A DNA stretch of 64,000 nt from Dysidea avara. Its lineage: Eukaryota; Porifera; Demospongiae; Dictyoceratida; Dysideidae. Shown piece after piece: positions 2,102 through 55,629 of the stretch. The stretch lies in assembly GCF_963678975.1 (NCBI RefSeq), contig NC_089274.1, forward strand, positions 47,460,075 to 47,524,074, in the 5' to 3' direction. Below the pieces are notes generated by a model. It was not told the DNA's origin and made no database searches. It saw only the letters and a program-made list of their open reading frames with translations. The translations under genes and the position numbers were made by a program. Numbering within the stretch: the first letter of the stretch is position 1; each line of letters opens with the position of its first letter.

Positions 2102-2886
2102 GGTGCGCAACACTGTGAGTATATTGACAGGAAAAAAAGAAAGCACGATTTTCGTACCTCCGTAGCTCTGTGCTGCCTTTACGAAACAAGACGATTTTGG
2201 CTGTGGACACGTCTGCCAACATCAGTACTACACATACCAAATTTGAGCAAAATTGCTTCAAGTGTTCCCAAGATATGCGACTTCAAAAGTTGGCTTAGTT
2301 TCTTTGTTTTAGTATTTTTCTTCTAATTTTTCTTCCTTTTTGCATACTTACAAAAACTGCCATAAAATGCAAACACCATATCTGATTGTCTTGAAATTTG
2401 ATATACAGAAGGTGGGTATAAAGGCGCATCTTGGTATCAAGTTTGGTTGAAATACAAAGCTCAGTGAAGGAGTTATTAGCGATTATTCACGAAAAATAAC
2501 ACCAATATGTTGTCATGCCTACAGGGTAAACTGCTTATGGGAAGAAGCTGAAAATCATTGGGTGAATAGGTTATAACTATTGAACCTCAAACCTTTTGTG
2601 GTTTGAAAGAAATCAAGCTAAACACCACGAAGATACAACAAAAAAAAACTAACAGTGTGTAACAATTATGCAATCGACTAAATGTAATGCCTACCAGATA
2701 AACAGCTTGGAGTAATGCTTTGAAAATCGCTGTACAGATGGAGAAATCATCTTAGAAAGGCTCTTCAATGGTGTAGAAGAATCAGACTTAAAGTCACAGA
2801 GTTATAACATAAAATCCAACTTGGAGTAGCAAGTGAGAGATCGAGATACTCTAATAGAGGAGTCATCCTAATAGAGCAGTCACCCT
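2102..2886 (+). repeat. Composite unit 1: body (diverged copy)
   Basis: Homologous over its whole length to the bodies at 41,353, 44,428, 50,959 and 60,504. Shared landmarks in order are 'gtgagtatattgacagg', a T-rich tract, 'cttacaaaaactgc', 'cttgaaatttg', 'ggtataaaggcgcatct', 'tgtcatgcctacagggtaaa' and a final 'gagatcgagatactctaat'. It has many substitutions and reading frames are broken, so it is an older copy. It is followed directly by the satellite. No protein family is recognised. Confidence 0.85.
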
Positions 2887-3790
2887 GAAGAGAGATCAGC
2901 TAAATACAAGTTACCCTATAGAGATCAGCTTCACCCAGTATATGTGCTGGAAACAAATTACCATGTAGAGAGATAGTTAGGAACAAGTCACCCAGTAGAG
3001 AGTTCAGCTAGAAACAAGTCACCCTGTAGAGAGATTAGCTACAAATAAATCACCCTGTAGAGAGATCAGCTAGAAACAAGTCACCCAGTAGATGGTTCAG
3101 CTAGAAACAAGTTACACTGTAGAGAGATCAAATCACTCTGTAGAAAGATCAGCTGGAAACAAGTCACCCTGTAGAGATATCAGCTAGAAACAAGTTACCC
3201 TATGGAGAATCAGCTACAAACAAATCACCCTGTAGAAATATGTGCTGGAAACAAATCACCATGTAGAGAGATCAGTTAGGAACAAGTCAACCTGTAGAGA
3301 GATCAGCTACAAACAAATCACCATGTAGTGAGATTAGCTAGAAACAAGTCACCCAGTAGAGATATCAGCTAGAAACAAGTTACCCTATAGAGAATCAGCT
3401 ACAAACAAATCACCCTGTAGAAATATGTGCTGGAAACAAATCACCATGTAGAGAGTTCAGCTAGAAACAAGTCAACCTGTAGAGAGATCAGCTACAAACA
3501 AATCACCATGTAGAGAGTTAAGCTAGAAACAAGTCACCTTGTAGAGAGAGATCAGCTATAAACAAATCATTGTGTAGAGAGATCAGCTAGAAACAAGTCA
3601 CCCGCTAGAGATATCAGCTAGATACAAGTTACCCTATAGAGATCAGCTACAAACAAATCACCCAGTAGAAATATGTACAGGAAACAAATCACCATGTGGA
3701 GAGTGCAGCTAGCACTCTGTAAAGAGTTCAGCTACAAACAATGATAGTTTCAGCTACAGTTCAGTTATGTAAGAAGTCACCTTATTAACT
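2887..3790 (+). repeat. Satellite array 1 (30/31-bp monomer)
   Basis: About 30 tandem monomers of the form GTAGAGAG-(A/T)TCAGCTA-(C/G)AAACAA-(A/G)TCACCCT. Monomers are more diverged than in the later arrays, consistent with the older body upstream. The array degrades at its right edge near 3790. Confidence 0.9.
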
Positions 3791-3818
3791 ACAGTATGTG
3801 ATAATCATTCAGTGTTAA

Positions 3819-4310
3819 CCATTTGGCCCCTAAAGCCAATATTTTGGCTTTGGTTCTTAAAAACGAAAGTAATTTTACGAAAAATACGCGTTTTGACATA
3901 AATTTGGGCTCCGGTTACTCCATGTAGGAACAACCTATTCCTCTGTGGTTTGTGTTAAACTACTCACGAAGTATAGATTTACAACATTATATAACTTTTA
4001 CTAACCTTCTTTATTCCATCTCTCCTTTATGACATTATGACAGGTAGTATCGTAGCAATTATCATCTTAAAAACGGCCGAAAATTCTTTCAAACGCATAT
4101 CGGCCTTACTTCACACTCAATCGTGCTACAATGTTTGGATAAAGCTTAGGGTATCACCCATTAACTGCAGAGTAGCATGGTCCAAACTGTATTCATAGGA
4201 TATTTCGTTTACGAGATATGTGCATTTGAACGCATGCGTGTAACAAAGCCAATATATTGGCTTTTGCATTTAACGGAACACTTTTCTTTATTAACATAGG
4301 GGCTAAAGGG
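3819..4310. mobile_element. piggyBac-like MITE with TTAA target sites
   Basis: A 492-bp segment is flanked by TTAA on both sides (3815-3818 and 4311-4314). Its ends are inverted: CCATTTGGCCCCTA at the left and TAGGGGCTAAAGGG at the right. TTAA duplication with CCC-type termini is the known signature of the piggyBac superfamily. Each end also carries a subterminal palindrome (AGCCAATATTTTGGCTT on the left, AAGCCAATATATTGGCTTT on the right). It has no transposase, so it would be non-autonomous. It sits between satellite array 1 and its tail. Confidence 0.75.
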
Positions 4311-4329
4311 TTAATTAATTAATTAAATA

Positions 4330-4475
4330 TACAAATGTTTAATCAGACAAAAAGCTATACACAAGTTACTTCTTTTGTTCCACAATTCCTGCAGTGAAGA
4401 AAAAAAACAAGTTAAAGGGAAGCACCAAAACCAGTTTATGGTTGGCTTTGTGGCTTGAAATACAGAAAGAAGTGA
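4330..4475 (+). repeat. Composite unit 1: tail segment
   Basis: Diverged homologue of the segments just before the palindromes at 50,642 and 55,307. It shares 'gtgaagaaaaaaaacaagtt' (compare 'gtaaagaaaaaaaacatagg') and the 'ggctttg...atacagaaagaa' stretch. This segment separates the satellite from the palindrome in three of the composite copies. Confidence 0.6.
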
Positions 4476-4805
4476 TATCTAAACCAAAACAGCCAAGCTG
4501 TAAAAAAAGAGTGCGACCCCCAAAAAGGCCAGGATGAAGATGTGAAATCCAAGGTGGCAGCCAAGAAATGGCTGTGATGGTAGGTTAATGGCAAACATTT
4601 TAATCACAACAATTCAGGTGAATTTACGCTGCCTCCTCCACTACGATTCGGCACCAAATTCACCTGAATTGTTGTAATTAAAATTTTTGCCATTAACCTA
4701 CTGTCACAGCCATTTCTTGGCTGCCACCTTGGATTTCACATCTTCACCCTGGCCTTTTAGGGGGTTGTACTCTTTTTTCACAGCTTCGCTGTTTTGGTTT
4801 AGATA
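4476..4805. repeat. Palindrome, composite unit 1
   Basis: A 330-bp inverted repeat with arms of about 150 bp (4476-4625 and 4656-4805) and a 30-base loop. The arms run from TATCTAAACCAAAACAGCC inward to AATTCAGGTGAATTT. It is homologous to the palindromes at 50,642-50,958 and 55,307-55,629, but its two arms have diverged more. No coding function. Confidence 0.85.
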
Positions 4806-10423: not shown

Positions 10424-11903
10424 GTAGGGTCCGCAATCCGAAAAATCAACTTTCACAAATCAATCCCCCTACCATTGTGGGATGTTCATTGTAGTATCCC
10501 ATTGCTAGATCCACCATGAAACCGGAGGCACGATTGTTGTCTTCACAGAACTATCGATTTTAGTATTTCGTGAGATGCAAAAATTATTTTTAAAATTTCG
10601 TGCTCCACACAAAGAACAGGATAGAACTTGCTGCTTAGCTAGGTATTATCTAGAGTTAATGTAGTTAAAAAGTACGCACAGTAATAAGCAAATGATTCAC
10701 TGGGTTCCCGGCACAGGGTTGCTTTCTCTCAAAAAGCAGAAAACAAAACATGAATTTTCAAATTCGAACTGCCCTACCAGCCAAGATAAGAAAAGCCAAC
10801 TCTTCCTCATAGTAATGTGATAAGGTTGGATGCATAGTCTGTCTATACTGTTAGTCTGGAAAGGATCTGAGACTTCTCACCATCTGGGTGAAGAACGTCA
10901 AATTTTTCGTGTGTTGTTTCAAGGGATTCTCTCAATGGTACCAAAGTGCTTTCCAGTACTTCTGATGCCACACTGGTCACTTAATTTTGTTTAGAATGAT
11001 GATAAATGATGGATCAAAACGTTTGGTAGTAGTAGCAGTTGGTGTTTCTGTGATTTCATATGATGCAGTATACCAGCAGCTCACCAGGAGCTCCACCCAG
11101 CTCAAATCAAAAATGAAAGATTTTGTGCATTTTTCGGTTTGTTTTGGGGTGTTTTGGTGATGTAGGGTGATCTAGTGAAGATTTGAAGCTGCTGTGGAGC
11201 GTGAGAGGTGAAGTCAAATTTGGACGATTTTGCTGCCTCCCTTGATTCATAGCTTAGAGCGAGGCGTGGAAGCTGTGGATGAAACAATAATTGACAACCA
11301 CTATTACCAAACGTTCAGGGACATCTTTTGCCATAGTTTTAGTCTATAATTGATGATTGTTGTGGCTGCAGAAGCACTGGAAATGATTAGAAAGCGCAAC
11401 ACAATTCTTTGATAGTGCAGAAAATTTTGACACTTGTCACCCAGATGGTGAGAAGTCTCAGATCTTTTCCAAACTAACAGCATAGACAGACTATGCACCC
11501 AACCGTATCGAAACACTATGAGGAATAGTTGGCTTCTCTTGCCCTGGGTGGTAGGGCAGTTTGAATTCGAAACTTCATATTTCTTTGTCTGTTTTTTCAA
11601 AAAAGCAACCCTGTGCCGGACACCCAGCTAATCATTTACTTATTTCTGTACGTAGTTTTCAACTACAACAACTCTGGATACGATTTGGCTAAGTGGCAAG
11701 TTTCATCCAGTCCTTTGTGTGGAGCACGAAATTTTAAAAATAAATCTTGCATCTTGTGAGATACTGAAAATGATATTTCTGTGAAGACAACAATCGTACC
11801 TCCGGTTTCATGGTGGATCAAGCAATGGGATACTACAATGAACATCCCACAATGGTAGGGGGATTGATTTGTAGAAGTTGATTTTTCGGATTGCGGACCC
11901 TAC
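10424..11903. mobile_element. 1.48-kb foldback with ~620-bp arms
   Basis: The left arm (about 10,424-11,042) and right arm (about 11,294-11,903) are inverted copies at roughly 80-85% identity by eye, around a 250-bp spacer. The ends are GTAGGGTCCGC and GCGGACCCTAC. A 5-bp direct repeat CGTGC flanks it (10,419-10,423 and 11,904-11,908), consistent with insertion and a TSD. Arm sequence looks once-coding, but both arms carry stops in all long frames. Either a foldback transposon or two head-to-head copies of one repeat. Confidence 0.7.
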
Positions 11904-12600: not shown

Positions 12601-12808
12601 AGACGGGTATAGTGGCGTTACCTGTAAGGAGTGATATCCTGGTTACAGCATCAATCTAGCATTCGAAGCGCAACGGCATGACCTCGCTGTGGACGTACAC
12701 GTGTTCACTGCTATTCTATTTAACTAACAGCACACGTGAGCATACATACAGAACCCACAATACAACATCATACAATACTACATAGTCAGTCAATCACTGT
12801 TCGTGACA
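12601..12808 (-). repeat. 3' LTR of the BEL/Pao element
   Basis: 208 bp, left-hand copy. In the sense direction it starts TGTCACGAAC and ends ...ACTATACCCGTC plus one base. The polyprotein reading frame runs 18 bp into this LTR and stops there, so the last few residues are LTR-encoded. Immediately upstream in the sense direction is a short purine run GGAGGA, a candidate polypurine tract for plus-strand priming. Confidence 0.95.
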
Positions 12809-18600: not shown

Positions 18601-18604
18601 TTCC

Positions 18605-37580: not shown

Positions 37581-37636
37581 CATTGGCCAAGGGGTTTGTT
37601 ACCCGGTTGAGCTGACAATACGTAGCTTCATAGATA

Positions 37637-39400: not shown

Positions 39401-40816
39401 TAAAACTTATAAACAATTATAGCTGTTGAGTAAACTCAAAATATATATCACTGTCATGTGTACAGCAACTTAGCTTCTCCATTATACTGTAGGGATGTCA
39501 ACGGATTTTAAAAATTTAATGCATGTTCCAGTGAATCTAGCCACAGAATTCTGTAGAGCTAAAAAAGTGTTGCAGATTGATATAATTATAAGGTTTGCCA
39601 CATTTGGTTTTGTGATAGCCAGTAATTGGCAAATAAACAAATAGGCAGTTCTCCAGATTTTTCCATTGAGCACCATTAGTAGCCATATGCACGGCACACA
39701 ACAACACAGGTGACGTATGGGTGATTATATGATGCATTCTCAATTGTGCAGCATTGTCAGGAAACTAACACAGGCATTTAAATTACATCTTACACTGACT
39801 GAAAATCACCCTATCAATAAACTGGAACAGTAATATTAACACTACTCAATGTGGTAATCGACAAAACTAGCCTGCTGTCATCTTCCACACAATTTCTAGG
39901 GAGGAATCTAACATATATTGGAGTTCACACATACACCTAGCTACTCTGAAACTCACCAAAAGAACACTTCCTTAATTGACAAGGTCATCAGTATGAAATT
40001 AAAGTGAAAAATCTAGTTCCTAAACTGTCTGTAAAACACACAATATATTGTACCACTTTTTAATGAATTTATGGGAGAAGAAATTCAGTAATTTTTGTGG
40101 GGCTTTGACATCCCTATAATTATAGGAACATATAAATATACTATTACATAAAACAATTCATGTCACTTTGAACACACTCGCTTTAACACGTACAGTCCAT
40201 ACTACTGGTATCTTCCCTCCTGTGGACACATAATAGGTGTCATCTGATACACCACGAGCCATCCAAAAATCAGCAATCTGTCAAGATCATTTATCTTTAT
40301 CCTTATCCTCATGAAAAAACGTTAACAACAAAAATCCACCAATTATGAGCATAATTTCAGGAATATAGGTAGTTAAAAATTTATATTACAATTCATGAAT
40401 TTCTTACTTGCAGTGTAATGGGGGAATAGATACTCTTAACCAACAGTGTTAGAGTCACCACTTAGCAATTAAAATAAACATGGCAGAATTTGTCCTACAG
40501 ATCAGATTGATCAGACATTTTCATCTCTTAGTTTATCATAACGGCTACATACAATAAAATCCATGCTTATTATACCTGATAGGACGTATTCATGCAAGGT
40601 TAAGTGTATCTACTGTAACTTTAATTTCAAACTCCCAACACTTCAAATATACAACATCATTAAATAATTCATTATACTATAACACTGACAGTATAATTAT
40701 CATATTAACACTCAAGGTTATTGATCTTAATATTATTATTATCTGCAAAAGATACCCTAACCTTTTCCAAGCTAAGCAAGACAATTTTTGACTATCATAC
40801 ATAAAAAGATTCAATA
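39401..40816. other. Non-coding, nothing recognised
   Basis: No coding frame with splice support and no definable repeat. Confidence 0.45.
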
Positions 40817-41286
40817 TTTGTGACCAGGCCTGTGACAATAGGGCATGTGGGCACAAACTACACCCCATCACTCTACAAGTCATATCTCGGTACTAGAAAA
40901 GTATATTTCCATTCTGTAACTTGCATCATGATGCCACTTAAATGCTTACCAAGAAATGAAAATTGCAATACCATAGCATAATGGTACAAAATGTTATGAG
41001 TGATGAAAGTATGACAAAGTAGGCAAAAATTTGTGACCAGGCCTGTGACAATAGGGCATGTGGGCACAAACTACACCCCATCACTCTACAAGTCATATCT
41101 CGGTACTAGAAAAGTATATTTCCATTCTGTAACTTGCATCATGATGCCACTTAAATGCTTACCAAGAAATGAAAATTGCAATACCATAGCATAATGGTAC
41201 AAAATGTTATGAGTGATGAAAGTATGACAAAGTAGGCAAAAATCATGTGCCCACATGCCCTATTATCGCAGGCCCAGTCACATTTG
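40817..41286. mobile_element. TIR element with exact internal 213-bp duplication
   Basis: Two apparently identical 213-bp copies (40,817-41,029 and 41,030-41,242) are followed by one inverted terminal segment (41,243-41,286). The repeat begins TTTGTGACCAGGCCTGTGAC. The right end holds TGTGCCCACATGCCC...CAGGCCCAGTCACA, its imperfect complement. So an element of about 257 bp with TIRs has had its left TIR plus body duplicated in tandem. No ORF of note. Confidence 0.8.
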
Positions 41287-41352: not shown

Positions 41353-41607
41353 ATCAAGACACACGGTAGTGTGTCGTGCGGCCCAAGAAGCCGGCGCGTA
41401 ACACCCGTGAGTATATTGACAGGAAGAAAGAAAACGCAATTTTCGCACCTCCGTAGCTCTGTGCTTCCTTGATGAAACAAGACGATTTTTGCTGTGGACA
41501 TGCCCCCCAACTGCAGCACTCCACATTCCAAATTTGAGCGAAATCGCTTCGCGCGTTCCCGAGATATGCGACTTCAAAAATTGGCTCAGTTTCTTCGTTT
41601 TTTTTTT

Positions 41608-41638
<31 letters not shown>

Positions 41639-42237
41639 TTTTTCTTTTTCTTGTCGCACACTTACAAAAACTGCTATAAAACTCGCACGCCATATCCGAT
41701 TGCCTTGAAATTTGGCACACAGAAGGGGGATATAAAGGCGCATCTCGGTACCAACTTTGGCTGGAATACGATAAACAGGCAAAGAGTTATGAGCGATTAT
41801 TCACGAAAATTAACACCAATATGTTGTCACGCCTACAGGGTAAACCGCGTATGGGAAGAAGCTGAAAATCGGTGGGTGAATAGGTTAACTATTGAACCTC
41901 AAACCTTTTGTGGTTTGAAAGAAATCGAGCTAAAAACCAGGAAGATACAACGAAAAAACCAACAGTGTGTAACAATTACGCAATCGAGATTAGCTAATAA
42001 AAAACGACTGCTTGCCACGCCTACCAGGTAAACCGCTTGGGGTAATGCTTTGAAAATCGCTGTACAGATGGAGTTATCATCTTAGAAAGGCTCTTCAATG
42101 GTGTAGAAGAATCAGACTTAAAACCACGGAGTTATAACACGAAATCCAACTTAGTGTAGCAAGTGTGAGATCGAGATACTCTAATAGAGCAGTCATCCTA
42201 ATAGAGCAGTCATCCTAATAGAGCAGTCACCCGAAGA
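41353..42237 (+). repeat. Composite unit 2: body
   Basis: The most complete 5' end, ATCAAGACACACGGTAGTGT, contains the hairpin ACACAC-GGTA-GTGTGT and then 'ggcccaagaagccgg'. A TTC-rich tract at 41,600-41,640 and internal motifs match the other bodies. Positions 41,362-44,427 (body plus satellite) are the first half of a 3066-bp tandem duplication. A 180-codon frame (41,489-42,031) crosses the pyrimidine tract. It is open in this copy and its duplicate only, so I do not call a gene. The right end is 'gagatactctaatagagcag' repeated three times. Confidence 0.9.
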
Positions 42238-44427
42238 GAATTCAAGAGATCAGCTAGAAACAAGTAACCTGTATAGAGATCAGCTACAAACAAGCCACCC
42301 TGTAGAGAGATCAGCCACAAACAATTCACCCTGTAGAGAGATCAGCTAGAAGAAGTTACCTTGTAGGGAATTCATGCAACTATAGAAAGAGATAATTCAG
42401 CTAGAAGAAATCACCTTGTAGAGTTCAGCTACAAAGAAACCACAATGTAGAGAGTTCAGATACAAAGAAACCACCATGTAGAGAATTCGTTTACAAACAA
42501 GTCACCCTATAGAAAGATCAGCTAGAAGAAGTTACCTCGTAGAGAGTTCAGTTACAAAGAAACCACCATGTAGAGAATTCATTTACAAACTAGTGACCCT
42601 GTAGAGACATCAGCTAGAAGAAGTTACCTTGTAAAGAGTTCAGCTACATAGAAACCATTCTGTAAAGAGCTCAGCTACAAACAAATCACCCTGTAGAGAG
42701 ATCAGCTAGAAGAAGTTACCTTGTTGATAGTTCAGCTACAAAGAAACCATCATGTAGAGAGTTCAGCTACAAACAAATCTACCTGTAGAGAGATCAGCTA
42801 GAAGAAGTTACCTTGTAGAGAGTTCAGCTTCAAACAAATCACCCTGTAGAAAGATCAGCTAGAAGAGGTCACCTTGTAGAGAGTTCAGTTACAAAAAAAC
42901 CACCATGTAGAGAGCTCAACTACAAACTAGTGACATTGTAGAGACATCAGCTAGAAGAAGTTACCTTGTAGAGAGTTCAGCTACAAAGAAACCATTCTTT
43001 AAAGAGCTCAGCTGCAAACAAACCACCTGTACAGAATTCAGCTACAAATAAATCACCCTGTAGAAAGATGAGCTAGAAAAAGTTACCTTGTAGAGAGTTC
43101 AGTTACAAAGAAACCACCATGTAGAGAATTCAGCTACAAACTAGTGACCCTGTAAAGACATCAGCTAGAAGAAGTTACCTTGAGAGAGTTCAACTACAAA
43201 GAAACCATCATGTAGAGAGTTCAGCTACAAACAAATCTACCTGTAGAGAGATCAGCTAGAAGAAGTTACCTTGTAGAGAGTTCAGCTTCAAACAAATCAC
43301 CCTGTAGAAAGATCAGCTAGAAGAGGTCACCTTGTAGAGAGTTCAGTTACAAAAAAACCACCATGTAGAGAGCTCAACTACAAACTAGTGACATTGTAGA
43401 GACATCAGCTAGAAGAAGTTACCTTGTAGAGAGTTCAGCTACAAAGAAACCATTCTTTAAAGAGCTCAGCTGCAAACAAACCACCTGTACAGAATTCAGC
43501 TACAAATAAATCACCCTGTAGAAAGATGAGCTAGAAAAAGTTACCTTGTAGAGAGTTTAGTTACAAAGAAACCACCATGTAGAGAATTCAGCTACAAACT
43601 AGTGACCCTGTAAAGACATCAGCTAGAAGAAGTTACCTTGAGAGAGTTCAGCTACAAAGAAACCATTATTTAAAGAGCTCAGCTGCAAACAAATCACCTA
43701 TACAGAATTCAGCTACAAACAAATCACCATGTAGAGAGATCAGCTAGAAGAAGTTAACTTGTAGAGAGTTCAGCTACAAAGAAACCATCATTTAGAGAGT
43801 TCAGCTTCAAACAAATCACCTGTAGAGAGTTCAGCTACAAAAAAATCTCCCTGTAGAGAGATCAGCTAGAAGAAGTTACCTTGTAGATCGTTCAGCTACA
43901 AACAAATCACCCTGTAGAGAGATCAGCTAGAAGAAGTTACCTTGTAGAGAGTTCAGCAACAAAGAAACCACTATGTAGAGAGTTCAGCTGCAAAGAAATC
44001 ACCCTGTATAAAATTCTGCCACGAACAAATTGCCCTGTAGAAAGATCAGTGAGAAGAAGTTACCTTGTAGATAGTTCAGCTACCAACAAATCACCATGTA
44101 GAGAGATCAGCTAGAAGAAGTTAACTTGTAGAGAGTTCAGCTACAAAGAAACCATCATTTAGAGAGTTCAGTTTCAAACAAATCACCTGTAGAGAGTTCA
44201 GCTACAAACAAATCTCCCTGTAGAGAGATCAGCTAGAAGAAGTTACCTTGTAGATCGTTCAGCTACGAACAAGTCACCCTGTAGAGAGATCAGCTAGAAG
44301 AAGTTACCTTGTAGAGAGTTCAGCTACAAAGAAAACACCATGTAGAGAGTTCAGCTGCAAAGAAATCACCCTGTAGAAAATTGTAGAGAGTTCAACTAGA
44401 GTTCAATTGTATCAATTGTAGAGAGTT
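42238..44427 (+). repeat. Satellite array 2
   Basis: About 70 monomers of 30/31 bp. Two alternating types are visible: GTAGAGAGTTCAGCTACAAA (31 bp with CAAATCACCCT) and GTAGAGAGATCAGCTAGAAG (30 bp with AAGTTACCTT). A 458-bp higher-order unit occurs twice (for example, matching positions 42,781 and 43,239). From about 42,740 the array matches 62,745-64,000 at a constant offset of 20,008 bp. Confidence 0.95.
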
Positions 44428-44673
44428 CACGGTAGTGTGTCGTGCGGCCCAAGAAGCCGGCGCGTAACACCCGTGAGTATATTGACAGGAAGAAAGAAAA
44501 CGCAATTTTCGCACCTCCGTAGCTCTGTGCTTCCTTGATGAAACAAGACGATTTTTGCTGTGGACATGCCCCCCAACTGCAGCACTCCACATTCCAAATT
44601 TGAGCGAAATCGCTTCGCGCGTTCCCGAGATATGCGACTTCAAAAATTGGCTCAGTTTCTTCGTTTTTTTTTT

Positions 44674-44704
<31 letters not shown>

Positions 44705-45303
44705 TTTTTCTTTTTCTTGTCGCACACTTACAAAAACTGCTATAAAACTCGCACGCCATATCCGATTGCCTTGAAATTTGGCACACAGAAGGGGGATATA
44801 AAGGCGCATCTCGGTACCAACTTTGGCTGGAATACGATAAACAGGCAAAGAGTTATGAGCGATTATTCACGAAAATTAACACCAATATGTTGTCACGCCT
44901 ACAGGGTAAACCGCGTATGGGAAGAAGCTGAAAATCGGTGGGTGAATAGGTTAACTATTGAACCTCAAACCTTTTGTGGTTTGAAAGAAATCGAGCTAAA
45001 AACCAGGAAGATACAACGAAAAAACCAACAGTGTGTAACAATTACGCAATCGAGATTAGCTAATAAAAAACGACTGCTTGCCACGCCTACCAGGTAAACC
45101 GCTTGGGGTAATGCTTTGAAAATCGCTGTACAGATGGAGTTATCATCTTAGAAAGGCTCTTCAATGGTGTAGAAGAATCAGACTTAAAACCACGGAGTTA
45201 TAACACGAAATCCAACTTAGTGTAGCAAGTGTGAGATCGAGATACTCTAATAGAGCAGTCATCCTAATAGAGCAGTCATCCTAATAGAGCAGTCACCCGA
45301 AGA
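44428..45303 (+). repeat. Composite unit 3: body
   Basis: Apparently base-for-base identical to 41,362-42,237. It starts abruptly in mid-hairpin (CACGGTAGTG) directly after a satellite monomer, which marks the 3066-bp tandem duplication breakpoint. Includes the same TTC tract and final 'taatagagcagtcaccc'. Confidence 0.95.
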
Positions 45304-48300
45304 GAATTCAAGAGATCAGCTAGAAACAAGTAACCTGTATAGAGATCAGCTACAAACAAGCCACCCTGTAGAGAGATCAGCCACAAACAATTCACCCTGT
45401 AGAGAGATCAGCTAGAAGAAGTTACCTTGTAGGGAATTCATGCAACTATAGAAAGAGATAATTCAGCTAGAAGAAATCACCTTGTAGAGTTCAGCTACAA
45501 AGAAACCACAATGTAGAGAGTTCAGATACAAAGAAACCACCATGTAGAGAATTCGTTTACAAACAAGTCACCCTATAGAAAGATCAGCTAGAAGAAGTTA
45601 CCTCGTAGAGAGTTCAGTTACAAAGAAACCACCATGTAGAGAATTCATTTACAAACTAGTGACCCTGTAGAGACATCAGCTAGAAGAAGTTACCTTGTAA
45701 AGAGTTCAGCTACATAGAAACCATTCTGTAAAGAGCTCAGCTACAAACAAATCACCCTGTAGAGAGATCAGCTAGAAGAAGTTACCTTGTTGATAGTTCA
45801 GCTACAAAGAAACCATCATGTAGAGAGTTCAGCTACAAACAAATCTCCCTGTAGAGAGATCAGCTAGAAGAAGTTACCTTGTAGAGAGTTCAGCTTCAAA
45901 CAAATCACCCTGTAGAAAGATCAGCTACAAACAAATCTCCCTGTAGAGAGATTAGCTAGAAGTTATCTTGTAGAGAGTTCAGCTACAAAGAAACCATCAT
46001 GTAGAGAGTTCAGCTACAAACAAATCTCCCTGTAGAGAGATCAGCTAGAAGAAGTTACCTTGTAGAGAGTTCAGCTTCAAACAAATCACCCTGTAGAAAG
46101 ATCAGCTAGAAGAGGTCACCTTGTAGAGAGTTCAGTTACAAAAAAACCACCATGTAGAGAGCTCAGCTACAAACCAGTGACCTTGTAGAGACTTCAGCTA
46201 GAAGAAGTTACCTTGTAGATAGTTCAGCTACAAAGAAACCATTCTTTAAAGAGCTCAGCTGCAAACAAATCACCTGTAAAGAATTCAGCTACAAATAAAT
46301 CACCCTGTAGAAAGATGAGCTAGAAAAAGTTACCTTGTAGAGAGTTCAGTTACAAAGAAACCACCATGTAGAGAATTCAGCTACAAACTAGTGACCCTGT
46401 AAAGACATCAGCTAGAAGAAGTTACCTTGAGAGAGTTCAGCTACAAAGAAACCATTATTTAAAGAGCTCAGCTGCAAACAAATCACCTATATAGAATTCA
46501 GCTACAAACAAATCACCATGTAGAGAGATCAGCTAGAAGAAGTTAACTTGTAGAGAGTTCAGCTACAAACAAATCACCCTGTATAGAGATCAGCTAGAAG
46601 AAGTTACCTTGTAGAGAGTTCAGCTACAAAGAAACCACCATGTAGAGAGTTCAGCTGCAAAGAAATCACCCTGTATAAAATTCTGCCACGAACAAATTGC
46701 CCTGTAGAAAGATCAGTTAGAAGAAGTTACCTTGTAGAGAGTTCAGCTACAAAGAAACCATTCTGTAAACAGCTCAGCTGCAAACAAATCACCTGTACAG
46801 AATTCAGCTACAAACAAATCACCCTGTAGAGAGATCAACTAGAAGAAATTACTTTGTAGAGAGTTCAGCTACAAAGAAACCACCATGTAGAGAGTTCAGC
46901 TGCAAACAAATCACCCTGTAGAAAATACAGCCACAAACAAATTGCCCTGTAGAAAGATCAGTTAGATGAAGTTACCTTTTAGAGAGTTCAGCTACAAAGA
47001 AACCACCCTGTAGAGAGATCAGCTAGAAGAAGTTACCTTGTAGAGAGTTCAGCTTCAAACAAATCACCCTGTAGAAAGATCAGCTACAAACAAATCTCCC
47101 TGTAGAGAGATTAGCTAGAAGTTATCTTGTAGAGAGTTCAGCTACAAAGAAACCATCATGTAGAGAGTTCAGCTACAAACAAATCTCCCTGTAGAGAGAT
47201 CAGCTAGAAGAAGTTACCTTGTAGAGAGTTCAGCTTCAAACAAATCACCCTGTAGAAAGATCAGCTAGAAGAGGTCACCTTGTAGAGAGTTCAGTTACAA
47301 AAAAACCACCATGTAGAGAGCTCAGCTACAAACCAGTGACCTTGTAGAGACTTCAGCTAGAAGAAGTTACCTTGTAGATAGTTCAGCTACAAAGAAACCA
47401 TTCTTTAAAGAGCTCAGCTGCAAACAAATCACCTGTAAAGAATTCAGCTACAAATAAATCACCCTGTAGAAAGATGAGCTAGAAAAAGTTACCTTGTAGA
47501 GAGTTCAGTTACAAAGAAACCACCATGTAGAGAATTCAGCTACAAACTAGTGACCCTGTAAAGACATCAGCTAGAAGAAGTTACCTTGAGAGAGTTCAGC
47601 TACAAAGAAACCATTATTTAAAGAGCTCAGCTGCAAACAAATCACCTATATAGAATTCAGCTACAAACAAATCACCATGTAGAGAGATCAGCTAGAAGAA
47701 GTTAACTTGTAGAGAGTTCAGCTACAAACAAATCACCCTGTATAGAGATCAGCTAGAAGAAGTTACCTTGTAGAGAGTTCAGCTACAAAGAAACCACCAT
47801 GTAGAGAGTTCAGCTGCAAAGAAATCACCCTGTATAAAATTCTGCCACGAACAAATTGCCCTGTAGAAAGATCAGTTAGAAGAAGTTACCTTGTAGAGAG
47901 TTCAGCTACAAAGAAACCATTCTGTAAACAGCTCAGCTGCAAACAAATCACCTGTACAGAATTCAGCTACAAACAAATCACCCTGTAGAGAGATCAACTA
48001 GAAGAAATTACTTTGTAGAGAGTTCAGCTACAAAGAAACCACCATGTAGAGAGTTCAGCTGCAAACAAATCACCCTGTAGAAAATACAGCCACAAACAAA
48101 TTGCCCTGTAGAAAGATCAGTTAGATGAAGTTACCTTTTAGAGAGTTCAGCTACAAAGAAACCACCCTGTAGAGAGATCAGCTAGAAGAAGTTACCTTGT
48201 AGATCGTTCAGCTACAAACAAATCACCCTGTAGAGAGATCAGCTAGAAGAAGTTACCTTGTAGAGAGTTCAGCTACAAAGAAACCACCATGTAGAGAGTT

Positions 48301-50372
48301 CAGCTGCAAAGAAATCACCCTGTAGAAAATTCTGCCACAAACAAATTGCCCTGTATAGAGAGATCAGTTAGAAGAAGTTACCTTTTAGAGAGTTCAGCTA
48401 CAAAGAAACCATTCTGTAAAGAGCTCAGCTGCAAACAAATCACCTGTACAGAATTCAGCTACAAACAAATCACCCTGTAGAGAGATCAGCTAGAAGAAAT
48501 TACCTTGTAGAGAGTGAAGCTACAAACAAATCACCCTATTGAAAAATCAGCTTGTAGAAGTCACCTTGTAGAAAGTTCAGTTACAAAGAAACCATTCTGT
48601 AAAGAGCTCAGCTGCAAACAAATCACCCTGTATGAGAGATCAGCTAGAAGAAGTTAACTTGTAGAGAGTTCAGCTACAAAGAAACTATCATTTAGAAAGT
48701 TCAGCTTCAAACAAATCACCTGTAGAGAGTTCAGCTACAAACAAATCTCCCTGTAGAGAGATCAGCTAGAAGAAGTTACCTTGTAGAGAGTGAAGCTACA
48801 AACAAATCACCCTATTGAAAAATCAGCTAGAAGAAGTCACCTTGTAGAAAGTTCAGTTACAAAGAAACCACCATGTAGAGAGTTCAGCTACAAACTAGCC
48901 ACCTTGTAGAGACATCAGCTAGAAAAGTTACCTTGTAGAGAGTTCAGCTACAAAGAAACCATTCTGTAAAGAGCTCAGCTGCAAACAAATCACCTGTACA
49001 GAATTCAGCTACAAACAAATCACCCTGTAGAGAGATCAGCTAGAAGAAGTTAACTTGTAGAGAGTTCAGCTACAAAGAAACCATCATTTAGAAAGTTCAG
49101 CTTCAAACAAATCACCTGTAGAGAGTTCAGCTACAAACAAATCTCCCTGTAGAGAGATCAGCTAGAAGAAGTTACCTTGTAGAGAGTGAAGCTACAAACA
49201 AATCACCCTATTGAAAAATCAGCTAGAAGAAGTCACCTTGTAGAAAGTTCAGTTACAAAGAAACCACCATGTAGAGAGTTCAGCTACAAACTAGCCACCT
49301 TGTAGAGACATCAGCTAGAAAAGTTACCTTGTAGAGAGTTCAGCTACAAAGAAACCACCCTGTAGAGAGATCAGCTAGAAGAAGTTACCTTGTAGATCGT
49401 TCAGCTACAAACAAATCACCCTGTAGAGAGATCAGCTAGAAGAAGTTACCTTGTAGAGAGTTCAGCTACAAAGAAACCACCATGTAGAGAGTTCAGCTGC
49501 AAAGAAATCACCCTGTAGAAAATTCTGCCACAAACAAATTGCCCTGTATAGAGAGATCAGTTAGAAGAAGTTACCTTTTAGAGAGTTCAGCTACAAAGAA
49601 ACCATTCTGTAAAGAGCTCAGCTGCAAACAAATCACCTGTACAGAATTCAGCTACAAACAAATCACCCTGTAGAGAGATCAGCTAGAAGAAATTACCTTG
49701 TAGATAGTTCAGCTACAAACAAATCACGCTGTAGAAAGATCAGTTAGAAGAAGTTACTTTGTAGAGAGTTCAGCTACAAAGAAACCATTCTGTAAAGAGC
49801 TCAGCTGCAAACAAATCACCTGTACAGAATTCAGCTACAAACAAATCACCCTGTAGAGAGATCAGCTAGAAGAAATTACATTGTAGATAGTTCAGCTACA
49901 AACAAATCACGCTGTAGAAAGATCAGTTAGAAGAAGTTACTTTGTAGAGAGTTCAGCTACAAAGAAACCATTCTGTAAAGAGCTCAGCTGCAAACAAATC
50001 ACCTGTACAGAATTCAGCTACAAACAAATCACCCTGTAGAGAGATCAGCTAGAAGAAATTACATTGTAGATAGTTCAGCTACAAACAAATCACGCTGTAG
50101 AAAGATCAGTTAGAAGAAGTTACTTTGTAGAGAGTTCAGCTACAAAGAAACCATTTTGTAAAGAGCTCAGCTGCAAACAAATCACCTGTACAGAATTCAG
50201 CTACGAACAAATCACCCTGTAGAGAGATCAGCTAGAAGAAGTTACCTTGTAGATAGTTCAGCTACAAACAAATCTCCCTGTAGAGAGATCAGCTAGAAGA
50301 AATTATCTTGTAGAGAGTTCAGCTACAAAGAAATCATCATGTGGAGAGTTCAGCTGCAAAGAAATCACCACT
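45304..50372 (+). repeat. Satellite array 3 (largest)
   Basis: About 5.07 kb, roughly 165 monomers of the same 30/31-bp family. A 1159-bp higher-order repeat occurs twice (for example, 45,951 and 47,110; 46,961 and 48,120). Near the right end a 183-bp (six-monomer) unit is repeated three times (49,725, 49,908, 50,091). The first 540 bp match array 2 exactly by eye. It ends where the TGTGACCGG-type MITE remnant begins. Confidence 0.95.
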
Positions 50373-50497
50373 GCCCAAATTTCAAGGCAATAGCTCTTTC
50401 CATTCTGAAGTTATCAATTGTCAAAGTTGGCAAATTGGATGTGTATGGAAGGCCCCTTTTCGCAAATCCGGTCCCATATGTATTATATATATAATTT
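50373..50497. mobile_element. TGTGACCGG MITE, truncated copy
   Basis: Only the right half of the element is present, joined directly to satellite on its left. It matches 55,018-55,141, ending CAAATCCGGTC followed by 'ccatatgta'. Its position between array and tail is the same as in unit 4. Confidence 0.75.
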
Positions 50498-50641
50498 GTA
50501 CATTTACTGATAAAATATTTAAAGTACATCTACTTCATCTTTTCTTCTTCCTGTAGTAAAGAAAAAAAACATAGGTTAAAAAAGTCCCAAAGCTGGCCAT
50601 AGGCCGGCTTTGGGGTATACAAATACAAAAAGAAATGAAAT
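50498..50641 (+). repeat. Composite unit 3: tail segment
   Basis: Nearly identical to 55,142-55,309: 'ttactgataaaatatttaaa', 'ttcttcttcctgtagtaaag' and 'ctggccataggccggctttg' in the same order. A diverged counterpart lies at 4330-4475. Confidence 0.75.
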
Positions 50642-50958
50642 CTAATCCAAAACAGCCAAGCTGTAAAAACAGTGTGCGGCCCTCAGAAAGGCTATGGTGA
50701 AAAAAGATGTGAAATCCAAGGTGGCGGCCAAGAAATGGCTGTGATGGTAGGTTAATGGTAAAAATTTTAATAACGACAATTCAGGTGAATTTTTGTGCCG
50801 CTTCACAAAATTTACCTGAATTGTCATTATTAAAATTTTTACCATTAACCTACCATCACAGCCATTTCTTGGCCGCCACCTTGGATTTCACATCTTTTTT
50901 CACCATAGCCTTTCTGAGGGCCGCACACTGTTTTTACAGCTTGGCTGTTTTGGATTAG
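50642..50958. repeat. Palindrome, composite unit 3
   Basis: A 317-bp inverted repeat with CTAATCCAAAACAGCC at the left and its complement at the right, arms of about 150 bp and a small loop of around 15 bases near 50,795. The arms are so alike that near-identical 67-residue frames appear on both strands. These are a product of symmetry, not genes. The right edge abuts the next body. Confidence 0.9.
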
Positions 50959-51777
50959 GCGCGCAACCCCGTGAGTATATTGACAGGAAGAAAGAAAACG
51001 CAATTTTCGCACCTCCGTAGCTCTGTGCTGCCTTGATGAAACAAGACAAATTTTGCTGTGTACATTCCCTCCAACTTCAGTACTCCACATTCCAAATTTG
51101 AGCGAAATCGCTTCAGGCATTCCTGAGATATGCGACTTCAAAAATTGGCTTAGTTTCTTCGTTTTTTTTTCTTCTTATTTTTCTTCCTCTTTTCGCACAC
51201 TTACAAAAACTGCTATAAAACGCGAACGCGTTATCCGATTGTCTTGAAATTTGGCGCACAGAAGGGGGATATAAAGGCGCATCTCTGTACCAACTTTGGC
51301 TGGAATACCATAAACAGGCAAAGAGTTATGAGCGATTATGCACAAAAAATAACACCAATATGTTGTCACGCCTACAGGGTAAACCGCGTATGGGAAGAAG
51401 CTGAAAATCGGTGGGTGAATAGGTTAACTATTGAACCTCAAACCTTTTGTGGTTTGAAAGACATCGAGCTAAAAACCAGGAAGATACAGCGAAAAAATCA
51501 ACAGTGTGTAACAATTACGCAATCGAGATTAGCTAATTTTTATTATTATTATTATTATTATTATGCTTGCCACGCCTACCAGATAAACCACTTGGGGCAA
51601 TGCTTTGAAAATCGCTGTACAGATGGAGTTATCATCTTAGAAAGGCTCTTCAATGGTGTAGAAGAATCAGACTTAAAGCCACGGAGTTATAACACGAAAT
51701 CCAACTTGGTGTAGCAAGTGCGAGATCGAGATACTCTAATAGAGCAGTCATCCTAATAGAGCAGTCACCCTGAACAG
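50959..51777 (+). repeat. Composite unit 4: body
   Basis: Homologous to units 2/3 but lacks the first 40-50 bp including the hairpin, starting 'gcgcaaccccgtgagtata'. The pyrimidine tract is shorter. Where the others read 'aataaaaaacgactgc' it carries a (TTA)9 microsatellite (51,537-51,563). A 156-codon frame at 51,244-51,714 covers part of the long frame in units 2/3, but the frame is broken at the T tract. Confidence 0.9.
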
Positions 51778-54700
51778 AATTCAAGAGATCAGTTAGAAAT
51801 AAGTAACCTGTATAGAGATCAGCTACAAACAAATCACCCTGTAGAGAGTTCAGCTACAAACAATTCACCCTGTTCAGACATCAGTTAGAAGAAGTTTTCT
51901 TGTAGAGAGTTCAGTTACAAACAAATCACCCTGTTGAAAGATCAGCTAGAAGATGTCACCTTATAGATAGTTCAGTTACAAAGAAACCACCATGTAGAGA
52001 ATTCAGCTACAAACTAGTGACCCTGTAGATACATCAGCTAGAAGAAGTTACCTTGTGGAGAGTTCAGCTACAAAGAAACCATTCTGTAAAGAGCTCAGCT
52101 GCAAACAAATCACCTATACAGAATTCAGCTACAAACAAATCACCCTGTAGAGAGATCAGCTAGAAGAAGTTACCTTGTAGATAGTTCAGCTACAAACAAA
52201 TCATCCTGTAGAGAGATCAGCTAGAAGAAGTTACCTTGTAGATAGTTCGGCTACAAACAATTCACCCTGTACAGAGCTCAGTTAAAAGAGGTTTCCTTGT
52301 ATAGAGTTCAGCTACAGACAAATCACCCTGTAGAGAGATCAGTTAGAAGAAGTTACCTTGTAGATCGTTCAGCTACAAACAATTCACCCTGTAAAGAGAT
52401 CAGCTAGAAGAAGTTACCTTGTAGAGAGTTCAGCTACAAAGAAACCATCATGTAGAGAATTCAGCCGCAAACAAATCATGTATAGAGAGTTCAGCTACAA
52501 ACAAATCTCCCTGTAGAGAGATCAGCTAGAAGAAGTTTCCTTGTAGAGAGTTCTGCTACAAACAAATCACCCTGTAGAAAGATCAGCTAGAAGAAATCAC
52601 CTTGTAGAGAGTTCAGCTTCAAAGAAACAATCATGTGAGAGTTCAGGTACAAACAAATTGTCCTGTAGAGAGATCAGCTAGAAGAAGTTACCTTGTAGAG
52701 AGTTCAGCTACAAAGAAACCATCATGTAGATAGTTCAGGTACAAACAAATCACCCTGTAGAAAGATCAGCTATAGAAGAAATCACCTTGTAGAGAGTTCA
52801 GCTACAAAGAAACTATCATGTAGAGAGTTCAACTACAAACAAATCACCCTGTAGAAAGATCAGCTATAGAAGAAATCACCTTGTAGAGAGTTCAGCTACA
52901 AAGAAACCATCATGTAGAGAGTTCAGCTACAAACAAATCGGCCTGTAGAGAGATCAGCTAGAAGAAATTACCTTGTAGAGAGTTCAGCTACAAAGAAACC
53001 ATCATGTAGAGAGTTCAGCTGCAAACAAATCACCTGTAGAGAGTTAAGCTACAAACAAATCTCCCTGTAGAGAGAGATCAGCTAGAAGAAGTCACCTTGC
53101 AGGGAGTTCAGTTACAAAGAAATAAACCATGTAGAGAGTTCAGCTGCAAACAAATCACCTGTAGAGAGTTCAGCTAGAAACAAGTCACCCTGTAGAGAGA
53201 TCAGCTAGAAACAAGTCACCTTGTAGAGAGTTCAGCTAGAAGAAGTCACATTGTAGAGCTACATAGAAACTACCATGTAGAGTTCAGCTGCAAACAAATC
53301 ACCCTGTAGAGAACTCAGCTACAAACAAATCGCCCTGTAGAAAGATTAGCTAGAAGAAGTTACCTTATAGGGAGTTCAGCTATGAACAGATCACACTGTA
53401 GAAAGTTCAGCTACAAACAAATCACCCTGTAGAGAGTTCAGTTACAAAGAAACCACCATGTAGAGAGTTCCGCTGCAAAAAAAATCAATCACTCTGTTGA
53501 GAGTTCAGCTAGAAGAAGTCACCTTGTAGAGAGTTAAGCTGCAAATAAATCACCCTGTAGAGAATTCAGCTACAAACAAATCACCCTGTAGAAAGATCAG
53601 TTAGAAGAAGTTACCTTGTAGAGAGTTCAGCTACAACGAAACCACCATGTAGAGAGTTCAGCTACAAACAAATCACCTGTAGAGAGTTCAGCTAGAAACA
53701 AGTCACCCTGTAGAGAGATCAGCTAGAAACAAGTCACCTTGTAGAGAGTTCAGCTAGAAGAAGTCACGTTGTAGAGAGTTCAGCTACAAAGAAACCACCA
53801 TTTAGAGAGTTCAGCTGCAAACAAATCACCCAGTAGAAAGTTCAGCTATGAACAGATCACCCTGTTGAGAGTTCAGTTAGAAACAAGGAATCCTGTAGAG
53901 AGATCACCTAGAAGTATCGCCTTGTAGAGAGTTCAGCTACAAACAAATCACCTGTAGAGAGTTCAGCTACAAACAAATCACCCTGTAGAGAGATCAGCTA
54001 GAAGTAGTCACCTTGTAGAGGGTTCAGCTATAAAGAAACCACCATGTAGAGAATTCAGCTGCAAACAAACACCCTGTAGAGAACTCAGCTACAAACAAAT
54101 CGCCCTGTAGAAAGATCAGCTAGAAGAAGTTACCTTGTAGGGATTTCAGCTACAAACAAATCACCCTGTAGAGAGTTCAGTTACAAAGAAACCATTCTGT
54201 AAACAGCTCAGCTGCAAACAAATCACTTGTACAGAATTCAGCTACAAACAAATCACCCTGTAGAGAGATCAGCTAGAAGAAATTACCTTGTAGATAGTTC
54301 AGCTACAAACAAATCACCCTGTAGAAAGATCAGTTAGAAGAAGTTACCTTGGAGAAAGTTCAGCTACAAAGAAACCATTTTGTAAAGAGCTCAGCTGCAA
54401 ACAAATCACCTGTACAGAATTCAACTACGAACAAATCACCCTGTAGAGAGATCAGCTATAAGAAGTTACCTTGTAGATAGTTCAGCTACAAACAAATCTC
54501 CCTGTAGAGAGATCAGCTAGAAGAAATTACCTTGTAGAGAGGTCAGCTACAAAGAAACCACCATGTAGAGAGTTCAGCTGCAAAGAAATCACCCTGTAAA
54601 AAATTCTGCCAGAAACAAATTGCCCTGTAGAAAGATCAGTTAGAAGAAGTTACCTTTTAGAGAGTTCAGCTACAAAGAAACCATTCTGTAAAGAGCTCAG

Positions 54701-54874
54701 CTGCAAACAAATCACCTATACAGAATTCAGCTACAAACACATCACCCTGTAGAGAGATCAGCTAGAAGAAGTTACCTTGTAGATCGTTCAGCTACAAACA
54801 ATTCACCCTGTAGAGAGAGCAATTAGAAGAAGTCACCTTGTAGATTGTTCAGTTACAAAGAAACCACCATGGAG
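51778..54874 (+). repeat. Satellite array 4
   Basis: About 3.1 kb, roughly 100 monomers, more varied than arrays 2 and 3. In its later part, GTAGAGAGTTCAGCTAGAAA hybrid monomers occur. The right part (54,180-54,670) resembles the 183-bp higher-order unit of array 3. It ends at 'caccatggagatttctg', followed by the TGTGACCGG MITE. Confidence 0.95.
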
Positions 54875-54898
54875 ATTTCTGTAATCAATATAATATTA

Positions 54899-55137
54899 TG
54901 TGACCGGATTTGCGAAAAGGGGTCTTCCACACACATCCAATTCTGTAACCGTTGGAGACCATAACTCAGTGTTCAAGTAATATATTAACCTGAAAATTTC
55001 ACCATGTATTCAGCTATAGTGGTGCTCACTACTGTCCAAAATTCAAGGCAATAGCTCTTTCCAATCTGAAGTTATCAATTGTCAAAGTTGGCAAATTGGA
55101 TGTGTGTGGAAGACCCCTTTTTGCAAATCCGGTCACA
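54899..55137. mobile_element. TGTGACCGG MITE, complete copy
   Basis: A 239-bp element with near-perfect TIRs of about 45 bp beginning TGTGACCGGATTTGC and including GGGGTCTTCCACACACATCC. TA lies directly outside both ends (54,897-54,898 and 55,138-55,139), compatible with a TA target duplication as in Tc1/mariner-like MITEs. No ORF. Confidence 0.8.
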
Positions 55138-55141
55138 TATG

Positions 55142-55306
55142 TATTATACAGTATATATAATTTATACATTTACTGATAAAATATTTAAAGTACATCTACT
55201 TCATCTTTTCTTCTTCCTGTAGTAAAGAAAAAAACATAGGTTAAAAAAAAAGTCCCAAAGCTGGCCATAGGCCGGCTTTGGGGTATACAAATACAAAAAG
55301 AAATGA
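55142..55306 (+). repeat. Composite unit 4: tail segment
   Basis: Close match to 50,498-50,641, differing mainly in A-run lengths. Links array 4 and its MITE to the palindrome. Confidence 0.75.
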
Positions 55307-55629
55307 AATCTAATCCAAAACAGCCAAGCTGTAAAAAAAGTGTGTGGCCCTCAGAAAGGCTATGGTGAAAAAAGATGTGAAATCCAAGGTGGCGGCCAAG
55401 AAATGGCTGTGATGGTAGGTTAATGGTAAAAATTTTAATAATGACAATTTAGGTAAATTTTGTGAAGTGGCACAAAAATTCACCTGAATTGTCGTTATTA
55501 AAATTTTTACCATTAACCTACCATCACAGCCATTTCTTGGCCGCCACCTTGGATTTCACATCTTTTTTCACCATAGCCTTTCTGAGGGCCGCACACTTTT
55601 TTTACAGCTTGGCTGTTTTGGATTAGATT
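55307..55629. repeat. Palindrome, composite unit 4
   Basis: A 323-bp inverted repeat with ends AATCTAATCC and GGATTAGATT, highly similar to 50,642-50,958 and less so to 4476-4805. Its right edge meets a TTA-repeat and the type-B SINE pair. Confidence 0.9.

What the first reader, a model, noticed from the sequence alone, without database searches (positions are those of the whole stretch)
2102..55629. A composite repeat: body + 30/31-bp satellite + tail + palindrome
The same order (body of about 0.8-0.9 kb, satellite array, tail, roughly 320-bp palindrome) occurs at 2.1-4.8, 44.4-50.96 and 50.96-55.63 kb. Body plus satellite occurs at 41.35 and 60.5 kb. All five copies have the same orientation. 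Ages differ: unit 1 is very diverged, while units 2 and 3 are identical. So the arrangement is old and still being copied. The satellite may be carried and expanded inside a mobile or structural unit. Tandem repeats within non-autonomous elements are known for Helitron/Helentron-related INE/DINE elements, and the body's 5' end has a small hairpin. However, I see no terminal CTRR signature and no protein. I do not recognise this unit as any named family.
Basis: partly seen in the sequence, partly recalled or inferred. Interest (0 to 1): 0.85.

Follow-up and report, generated by a model that had tools for sequence, protein, structure and literature searches.

The report
Jumping DNA element carrying a satellite
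The repeated unit is a jumping DNA element without a protein gene of its own, found in thousands of copies in this animal genome, and each jump carries a built-in block of short tandem repeats and a long palindrome to a new place.

Summary
The composite unit is real and mobile. In the window's 550.8-Mb genome, all 20 fetched best body matches outside the window carry body + satellite + tail + palindrome. Ends are fixed, A|TCAAGACACACGG ... GGATTAGA|T: 24 of 24 left flanks end in A, 21 of 21 right flanks start with T. One nested copy has a matching empty site. The terminal hairpin occurs 13,480 times (up to 2 mismatches; reversed control 0); 17 of 20 sampled places run into body, then satellite. 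Nine copies of 5369-5382 bp are at least 99.7% alike, array included. Perfect junctions: 181 head-to-tail, 2 head-to-head, 0 tail-to-tail. Best reading: a non-autonomous Helitron-like (rolling-circle) family with non-canonical ends: 5'-TC, A^T insertion, no terminal inverted repeats, a hairpin 11 nt from the 3' end and AT-rich 3' flanks, but no CTRR. No protein-coding partner with these ends was found (4 of 150 RepHel loci read). Closest known: satellite-carrying Helentron elements (Cg_HINE) of oyster. New variant of a known kind.

The parts
41354..50958 (+).
   Evidence: 5' flank A and TC start as in 24 of 24 unit starts; bodies share a 1419-bp identical run; 3' end GGATTAG, last A missing
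41358..41375 (+). 5' hairpin GACACAC GGTA GTGTGTC, 4 nt from the 5' terminus
   Evidence: 7-bp stem; minus strand of 41355-41405 folds at -11 kcal/mol, z -2.6; 13,480 genome copies of the terminus
41354..42180 (+). body 1 (non-coding, with a TTC run)
   Evidence: no Pfam or Rfam match
42181..42229 (+). 17-bp repeats CTAATAGAGCAGTCATC at the body/array border
42245..44382 (+). 30/31-bp satellite array of body 1
45311..50370 (+). satellite array of unit 2
50371..50641 (+). tail of unit 2
   Evidence: 94.6% to unit 3 over tail + palindrome; found next to the palindrome in the fetched copies
50642..50958 (+). palindrome of unit 2, at the 3' end
   Evidence: 96.9% to its own reverse complement
50959..55627 (+). 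unit 3, head-to-tail with unit 2, about 40 nt of its 5' end missing; 3' flank T at 55628
51784..54875 (+). satellite array of unit 3
54876..55306 (+). tail of unit 3, about 155 bp longer at its start than that of unit 2
55307..55629 (+). palindrome of unit 3 as self-matched; the element ends at 55627 (GGATTAGA, then host T)
   Evidence: 95.1% to its own reverse complement
2102..4803 (+). unit 1, old copy without the first 40 nt or so; 3' end GGTTTAGA, then T at 4804
   Evidence: body 82% to the others by BLAST, 87% without gaps
2946..3712 (+). satellite array of unit 1
4476..4805 (+). palindrome of unit 1 as self-matched (element ends at 4803)
   Evidence: 88.6% to its own reverse complement
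60505..64000 (+). fifth copy, of the second body clade, with array; runs off the window
   Evidence: the far end was not read
1956..1993 (-). relic of the same terminus with a different interior (..CTTGA, then host T)
   Evidence: 90% over 40 bp; weak fold, z -0.8

Best explanation
The unit is a non-autonomous rolling-circle (Helitron-like) transposon family with non-canonical ends. Shown: its ends are fixed, 5'-TCAA[GACACAC GGTA GTGTGTC]... and ...[ACAGC TTG GCTGT]TTTGGATTAGA-3'; it inserts precisely at an AT dinucleotide (read either as between A and T with no duplication, or as a 2-bp AT duplication; the sequence cannot tell these apart); array and palindrome are copied with it as one block; abutting copies sit head-to-tail far more often than otherwise. 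Inferred: a RepHel (HUH endonuclease plus helicase) protein supplied by another element cuts at the 5' TC, peels off one strand and stops at the hairpin near the 3' terminus inside the palindrome, and the strand or circle is joined into an A|T site with AT-rich DNA on its 3' side. Also inferred: the 31-bp satellite grew inside the element from the 17-bp repeat at the end of the body, so each transposition seeds a ready-made satellite array, which then changes length by slippage or unequal exchange.
For: Dispersed near-identical copies; 20 of 20 fetched best matches outside the window with the full order; fixed ends with A on the left in 24 of 24 and T on the right in 21 of 21 (two of the left flanks are the end of another unit); empty site for a nested copy; nine units of 5369-5382 bp at least 99.7% identical over full length; 13,480 termini, reversed control 0, 17 of 20 sampled followed by body and satellite; no terminal inverted repeats; hairpin 11 nt from the 3' end, the spacing seen in a canonical Helitron of this genome, L035; right flank 84% A+T against 68% on the left, as Helraiser's bias is strongest at the 3' flank (PMC4778049 passages); 181 head-to-tail against 2 head-to-head and 0 tail-to-tail junctions; 150 scored RepHel N-terminal matches in the genome, many with long open frames, three translated loci having Rep, Pif1 and OTU domains.
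Against: The 3' end is TTAGA, not CTRR. No autonomous element with these ends was found: 4 of 150 scored RepHel loci were read, 9-10 kb each, and none has them, so the partner is simply unknown. The termini do not fit Helentron TT targets either. In both fetched head-to-tail junctions (L016, L020) the upstream unit is the older one, so oriented re-use of a target explains those and concatemers are not shown. Head-to-head and tail-to-tail junctions would be long inverted repeats, which may be unstable or badly assembled, so the asymmetry may be overstated. A 2-bp AT duplication made by another enzyme is not excluded. Satellite origin from the 17-mer rests on comparison of the two sequences only.
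Confidence: 0.78

Rival explanations
1. A non-autonomous element moved by a site-specific recombinase (Crypton-like tyrosine or serine recombinase) through a circle, with AT as the 2-bp crossover core.
For: No terminal inverted repeats, AT on both sides of the units, head-to-tail excess; an AT duplication and an A^T insertion give the same sequence.
Against: It has Helitron-like 5'-TC, hairpin spacing and AT-rich 3' flank. Recombinase genes were not searched for here, so this rests on prior plausibility. RepHel genes are abundant.
Confidence: 0.08
2. A terminal-inverted-repeat (DDE) transposon or MITE relative with a 2-bp AT duplication, the palindrome being the actual mobile hairpin and the body and satellite passengers.
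For: The palindrome itself reads TCTAATCC...GGATTAGA and has AT at both borders in unit 3; many other palindromic repeats lie in this window.
Against: The whole unit has no terminal inverted repeats. Body and palindrome travel together in 20 of 20 fetched matches. No lone palindrome with its own A|T site was seen in the fetched loci, but none was searched for systematically; two partial palindromes without body next to them are in L016 and L034.
Confidence: 0.08
3. A Helentron/HINE-branch element in the strict sense.
For: Hairpin 4 nt from the 5' end, central tandem repeats, 3' palindrome, a 9-bp subterminal inverted repeat 23 nt from the 5' and 34 nt from the 3' end, reached in 17 of 2000 shuffles; features as in PMC4067079 and PMC7492417 (passages and sections).
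Against: Target is A|T in all ends read, not TT; the palindrome is more than ten times longer; no endonuclease-bearing partner found.
Confidence: 0.04
4. Segmental or tandem duplication of a heterochromatic block without transposition.
For: Local duplication did happen at 41.35/44.4 kb.
Against: The 20 fetched copies lie on 11 contigs with exact ends, unlike flanks and an empty site for one; 13,480 termini on both strands.
Confidence: 0.02

Closest known systems
Cg_HINE non-autonomous Helentrons of Pacific oyster (PMC7492417; abstract and two results sections read)
   Same: Satellite-like tandem repeats as a central module of a non-coding element, with flanking modules, a microsatellite on the left, a palindrome on the right, no target duplication, dispersed genome-wide
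   Different: T-rich/TT target there, A|T here; 60-bp right flank there, 271-bp tail plus 323-bp palindrome here; 800-bp body here; arrays of 2-6 kb with 30/31-bp units here
DINE-1/INE-1 and HINE elements of Drosophila and mite (PMC4067079; passages)
   Same: Non-coding, very high copy number, subterminal palindromic repeat 2-4 nt from the 5' end, stem-loop near the 3' end, microsatellites or tandem repeats in some copies
   Different: TT or T-rich target and a 5-10 bp 3' palindrome there
Canonical Helitrons, such as bat Helraiser (PMC4778049; passages) and L035 in this genome
   Same: 5'-TC, insertion between A and T, no terminal inverted repeats, hairpin about 11 nt from the 3' end, AT-rich 3' flank
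   Different: CTRR (CTAG) end there, TTAGA here; short hairpin there, 5-bp-stem hairpin inside a 323-bp palindrome here
FoHeli non-canonical Helitrons of Fusarium (PMC5148889; passages)
   Same: TC-type start, hairpins near both ends, asymmetric inverted repeats, no CTRR
   Different: Other end sequences, TNAT|T target, protein-coding, no satellite mentioned in the passages read

Membership tests
Helitron (canonical, Helitron1) | 5' terminus TC | tested here: met
   24 of 24 unit starts read A|TC
Helitron (canonical, Helitron1) | Insertion between A and T without target duplication | tested here: met
   A in 24 of 24, T in 21 of 21; empty site at one locus, L014/L020. A 2-bp AT duplication would look the same
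Helitron (canonical, Helitron1) | 3' terminus CTRR | tested here: not met
   TTAGA in the 21 complete 3' ends
Helitron (canonical, Helitron1) | 16-20 nt palindrome about 11 nt from the 3' end | tested here: inconclusive
   ACAGCTTGGCTGT (13 nt, 5-bp stem) lies 11 nt from the end, but is part of a 323-bp palindrome (sequence)
Helitron (canonical, Helitron1) | Autonomous RepHel partner sharing the termini | tested here: inconclusive
   Not found; 4 of 150 scored loci read
Helentron/HINE (Helitron2 branch) | TT or T-rich target | tested here: not met
   A|T in all ends read
Helentron/HINE (Helitron2 branch) | Asymmetric subterminal inverted repeats | tested here: inconclusive
   GTGCGGCCC at 23 nt from the 5' and 34 nt from the 3' end in L015; 17 of 2000 shuffles reach 9 bp; not tested across clades
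Helentron/HINE (Helitron2 branch) | Palindrome near the 3' end and central tandem repeats | tested here: met
   20 of 20 fetched best matches
Helentron/HINE (Helitron2 branch) | Partner with RepHel plus endonuclease | not tested
   No endonuclease search made
TIR transposon / MITE | Terminal inverted repeats | tested here: not met
   Longest inverted match between the terminal 70 nt of L015's unit is 9 bp and not terminal
Classical satellite DNA | Arrays independent of a mobile element | tested here: inconclusive
   Arrays lie in the element in 20 of 20 fetched matches and 17 of 20 sampled termini, but both sets were chosen through the element; arrays outside it were not searched for

The most novel reading that the evidence does not exclude
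A distinct lineage of rolling-circle elements, probably in an early-branching animal, whose 3' terminator is a 323-bp near-perfect palindrome kept homogeneous because both arms change together, and which works as a satellite factory: a 17-bp repeat at the end of its body was stretched to 31 bp, expanded to kilobase arrays, and is now exported by transposition to more than ten thousand loci.
Probability: 0.28. Interest if true: 0.68.

Novelty: new variant of a known kind. Interest (0 to 1): 0.55.

Why it matters
It catches the spread, and perhaps the birth, of a satellite in one system. The 17-mer, the 31-mer, young near-identical arrays and old diverged arrays all sit inside one mobile element with precise ends, so array age, length change and export can be measured copy by copy. 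It adds a case beyond the oyster, fly and mite examples read here for Helitron-type elements as carriers of tandem repeats. It also raises a testable question: whether a 323-bp palindrome can stand in for the short terminator hairpin and CTRR. With thousands of copies and arrays of kilobases it should be masked before gene annotation in this genome.

Tried and rejected
Local accident or segmental duplication: rejected by dispersed copies with exact ends and an empty site. Coding body: the 203-aa frame has no Pfam match at E 0.01, and copies differ by 1-2 bp indels. RNA gene: no Rfam match in the window at gathering scores or in the body at E 1. Mirror orientation (5' hairpin side as 3' end): considered first, set aside because the AT-rich flank and the 11-nt hairpin spacing lie on the palindrome side, not excluded. 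Head-to-tail pairs as proof of concatemers: withdrawn, since in L016 and L020 the upstream unit is older. Two empty sites: withdrawn to one, because L014 and L020 are fetched stretches of the same locus. Autonomous partner: L035, L036, L057 and L058 do not show the ends in the 9-10 kb read. Of the 352 termini with another interior only 100 were listed; by eye against one, C1:51674124(+), lies 5.4 kb upstream of a RepHel match at C1:51679543(+); at one terminus per 41 kb some such neighbours are expected by chance, and it was not read. Other collections: no viral-contig hit to a 22-mer of the body/17-mer border; one viral-contig and five bacterial hits to a 19-mer of the body; BLAST of the window against the locus file then held gave no match at E 1e-3, so I take these as chance 19-mers. 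Literature: the listings of searches show no paper on this unit; that is open PMC text only, listings cut at 8 to 15. Not obtained: genome-wide counts of the satellite monomer and of the body motif. Searches were waiting only.
Full report
What was checked. The window is G000:C3:47460075-47524074 of a 550.8-Mb, 108-contig genome. Its repeats and gene style recall a sponge to me (memory only). The published Dysidea avara assembly (575 Mb, 162 scaffolds, 15 chromosomes; PMC12909245, passages) is of similar but not equal size; identity was not tested.

The observation. Tandem-repeat and self-BLAST results confirm the order body, 30/31-bp array, tail, palindrome in three places and body + array in two more, all on the + strand. 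Units run 2102-4803, 41354-50958 (with the body twice), 50959-55627 and from 60505. The identical pair is the bodies at 41.35 and 44.4 kb (1419-bp run). Units 2 and 3 differ by 6-10% in the body. Unit 1's tail is mostly a 500-bp TTAA-bounded insert.

It is a mobile element. A body query gives 43 scored matches out of 3305 candidates, of which 40 are scored; the 40 full-length ones are 96-100% identical and lie on many contigs. I took the 20 best outside the window, about 10 kb each, on 11 contigs. All 20 carry body, satellite, tail and palindrome. The 5' side reads A|TCAAGA in all 24 unit starts in these loci and the 3' side GGATTAGA|T in the 21 complete 3' ends; two units run off the stretch, and I dropped one row (L022+2313) whose apparent end is the inner arm of a nested unit. 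Two of the 24 left flanks are the end of another unit. In L022 one unit lies inside the tail of another. Its joined host flanks match, across the join and without a gap, the uninterrupted tail of the unit upstream of L020 (162 bp, 98.8%; 198 bp, 98.5% in L014, a second stretch of the same locus). Window unit 3 matches at 94.6% with 6 extra bases near the join. Complete units are 2.5-7.4 kb (21 units). Nine of 5369-5382 bp are 99.7-100% identical to L015 throughout (L015 counted as itself), array included: the array moves with the element. These are the best matches, so they show a young set, not the average copy.

How many. The terminal hairpin pattern occurs 13,480 times at up to 2 mismatches (6742 + 6738), reversed control 0. 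The palindrome end occurs 22,691 times (11,351 + 11,340), control 0; a full palindrome gives two hits. As a sample not chosen by the body I took every fifth of the 100 listed termini (all exact matches on the first 8 Mb of contig 1, so biased to young copies). 17 of 20 run into body and then satellite within 1.4 kb. Of the rest, L042 has the body split by another insert, L051 has 250 bp of body then other sequence, and L037 has only the terminus. About 11,000 units is the rough inference. Of 73 listed termini in the stretch covered by both lists, 30 have a listed palindrome end 0.6-8 kb away on the interior side and 6 on the exterior side; random positions give 6.2 on average and at most 18 in 2000 draws. 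Only exact palindrome hits were listed, so 30 of 73 is a lower bound; for the other 43 a partner was not shown.

Clades. A tree of bodies shows two main groups, that of u1, u3 and b41/u2 and that of b60 with a sister set, plus two long branches (S039, S047) outside them (six near-identical units and three sampled loci left out). Members of both groups have the same terminus and a satellite. In L030 a unit with a body only 66.5% alike still has a palindrome 92.7% alike; this is one case. Palindrome arms agree within a copy (92.9-99.3%, nine copies) better than unit 1 agrees with three others (85-90%). Between unit 1 and L015, 11 columns differ in both arms at once, while in 11 others one arm is off. 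So arms tend to change together, by selection or by a copying mechanism.

What kind. Shared with Helitrons: 5'-TC, A^T target, no terminal inverted repeats, a hairpin 11 nt from the 3' end, and an AT-rich 3' flank (84% A+T against 68% on the other side; Helraiser's bias is also strongest at the 3' flank, PMC4778049 passages). A canonical Helitron of the same genome, L035, has CGCGCATTTTGCGCG, then 11 nt ending CTAG, then T (the same test found no such end in L036, L057 or L058). The genome has 150 scored RepHel N-terminal matches of 230 candidates; three translated loci have Rep, Pif1 and OTU domains. Against: no CTRR, and no partner with these ends (4 of 150 loci read). The 5' hairpin folds with z -2.6 and -2.0 in two copies and -0.8 in the relic at 1956. 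The hairpin 4 nt from the 5' end, central tandem repeats, 3' palindrome and a candidate 9-bp asymmetric inverted repeat resemble Helitron2/HINE elements (PMC5148889 and PMC4067079, passages; PMC7492417, sections), but the target is not TT. I therefore call it Helitron-like and file it under neither branch.

Junctions. Perfect head-to-tail junctions number 181 at up to 2 mismatches (64 exact), head-to-head 2 sites, tail-to-tail 0. In the two fetched cases (L016, L020) the upstream unit is older, so oriented re-use of one A|T target explains these; concatemers are not shown. Inverted junctions may also be under-assembled.

Origin of the satellite. The body ends in 17-bp repeats CTAATAGAGCAGTCAYC. 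The 31-mer, written from its CT as CTGTAGAGAGTTCAGCTACAAACAAATCACC, has the same two ends with a longer middle and follows almost without a break. That it came from the 17-mer is inference. The 17-mer motif also lies without this body at 1349 and 56418 and in the host flank of L031, so it belongs to a wider set of repeats.

Not shown: the transposase, the mechanism, transcription, chromatin, how much satellite lies outside the element, and what the 60.5-kb copy looks like beyond the window.

Noticed in passing
12602-18601: BEL/Pao LTR retrotransposon on the minus strand with identical 208-bp LTR stretches and an 1844-aa open frame with peptidase A17, RT and integrase matches: a young insertion.
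   Followed up: partly
18327-18446: 55-bp tandem duplication (98%) of sequence inside the terminal repeat region of that retrotransposon.
   Followed up: no
3815-4314: 500-bp insert bounded by TTAACC..GGTTAA-type inverted ends inside unit 1's tail, like a piggyBac-type MITE (label recalled, not tested).
   Followed up: partly
29186-29446 and 54889-55148: The upstream part of unit 3's tail has a lone copy elsewhere in the window (81%) and is partly inverted on itself: the tail may have been captured from a separate repeat.
   Followed up: no
1349-1390 and 56359-56418: 17-mer motif (GATACTCTAATAGAGCAGTCA type) without this body, once on each strand; the one at 1349 is followed by an unrelated 276-bp palindrome at 1436-1711.
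   Followed up: no
10424-11903, 31419-31955, 37022-37742: Further long inverted repeats or palindromes: this genome seems rich in foldback elements.
   Followed up: no
40816-41243 and 55634-56088: Exact 213-bp tandem duplication just upstream of the first body, and a 196-bp duplication (99%) just downstream of unit 3.
   Followed up: no
L057:1787-8020: A RepHel-OTU Helitron with a 2078-aa open frame whose upstream flank is the body and satellite of a unit, so it appears inserted in one; its downstream flank has its own tandem repeats.
   Followed up: partly
L035:543-5558: A Helitron with a 1613-aa open frame and a canonical 3' end: hairpin, 11 nt, CTAG|T.
   Followed up: partly
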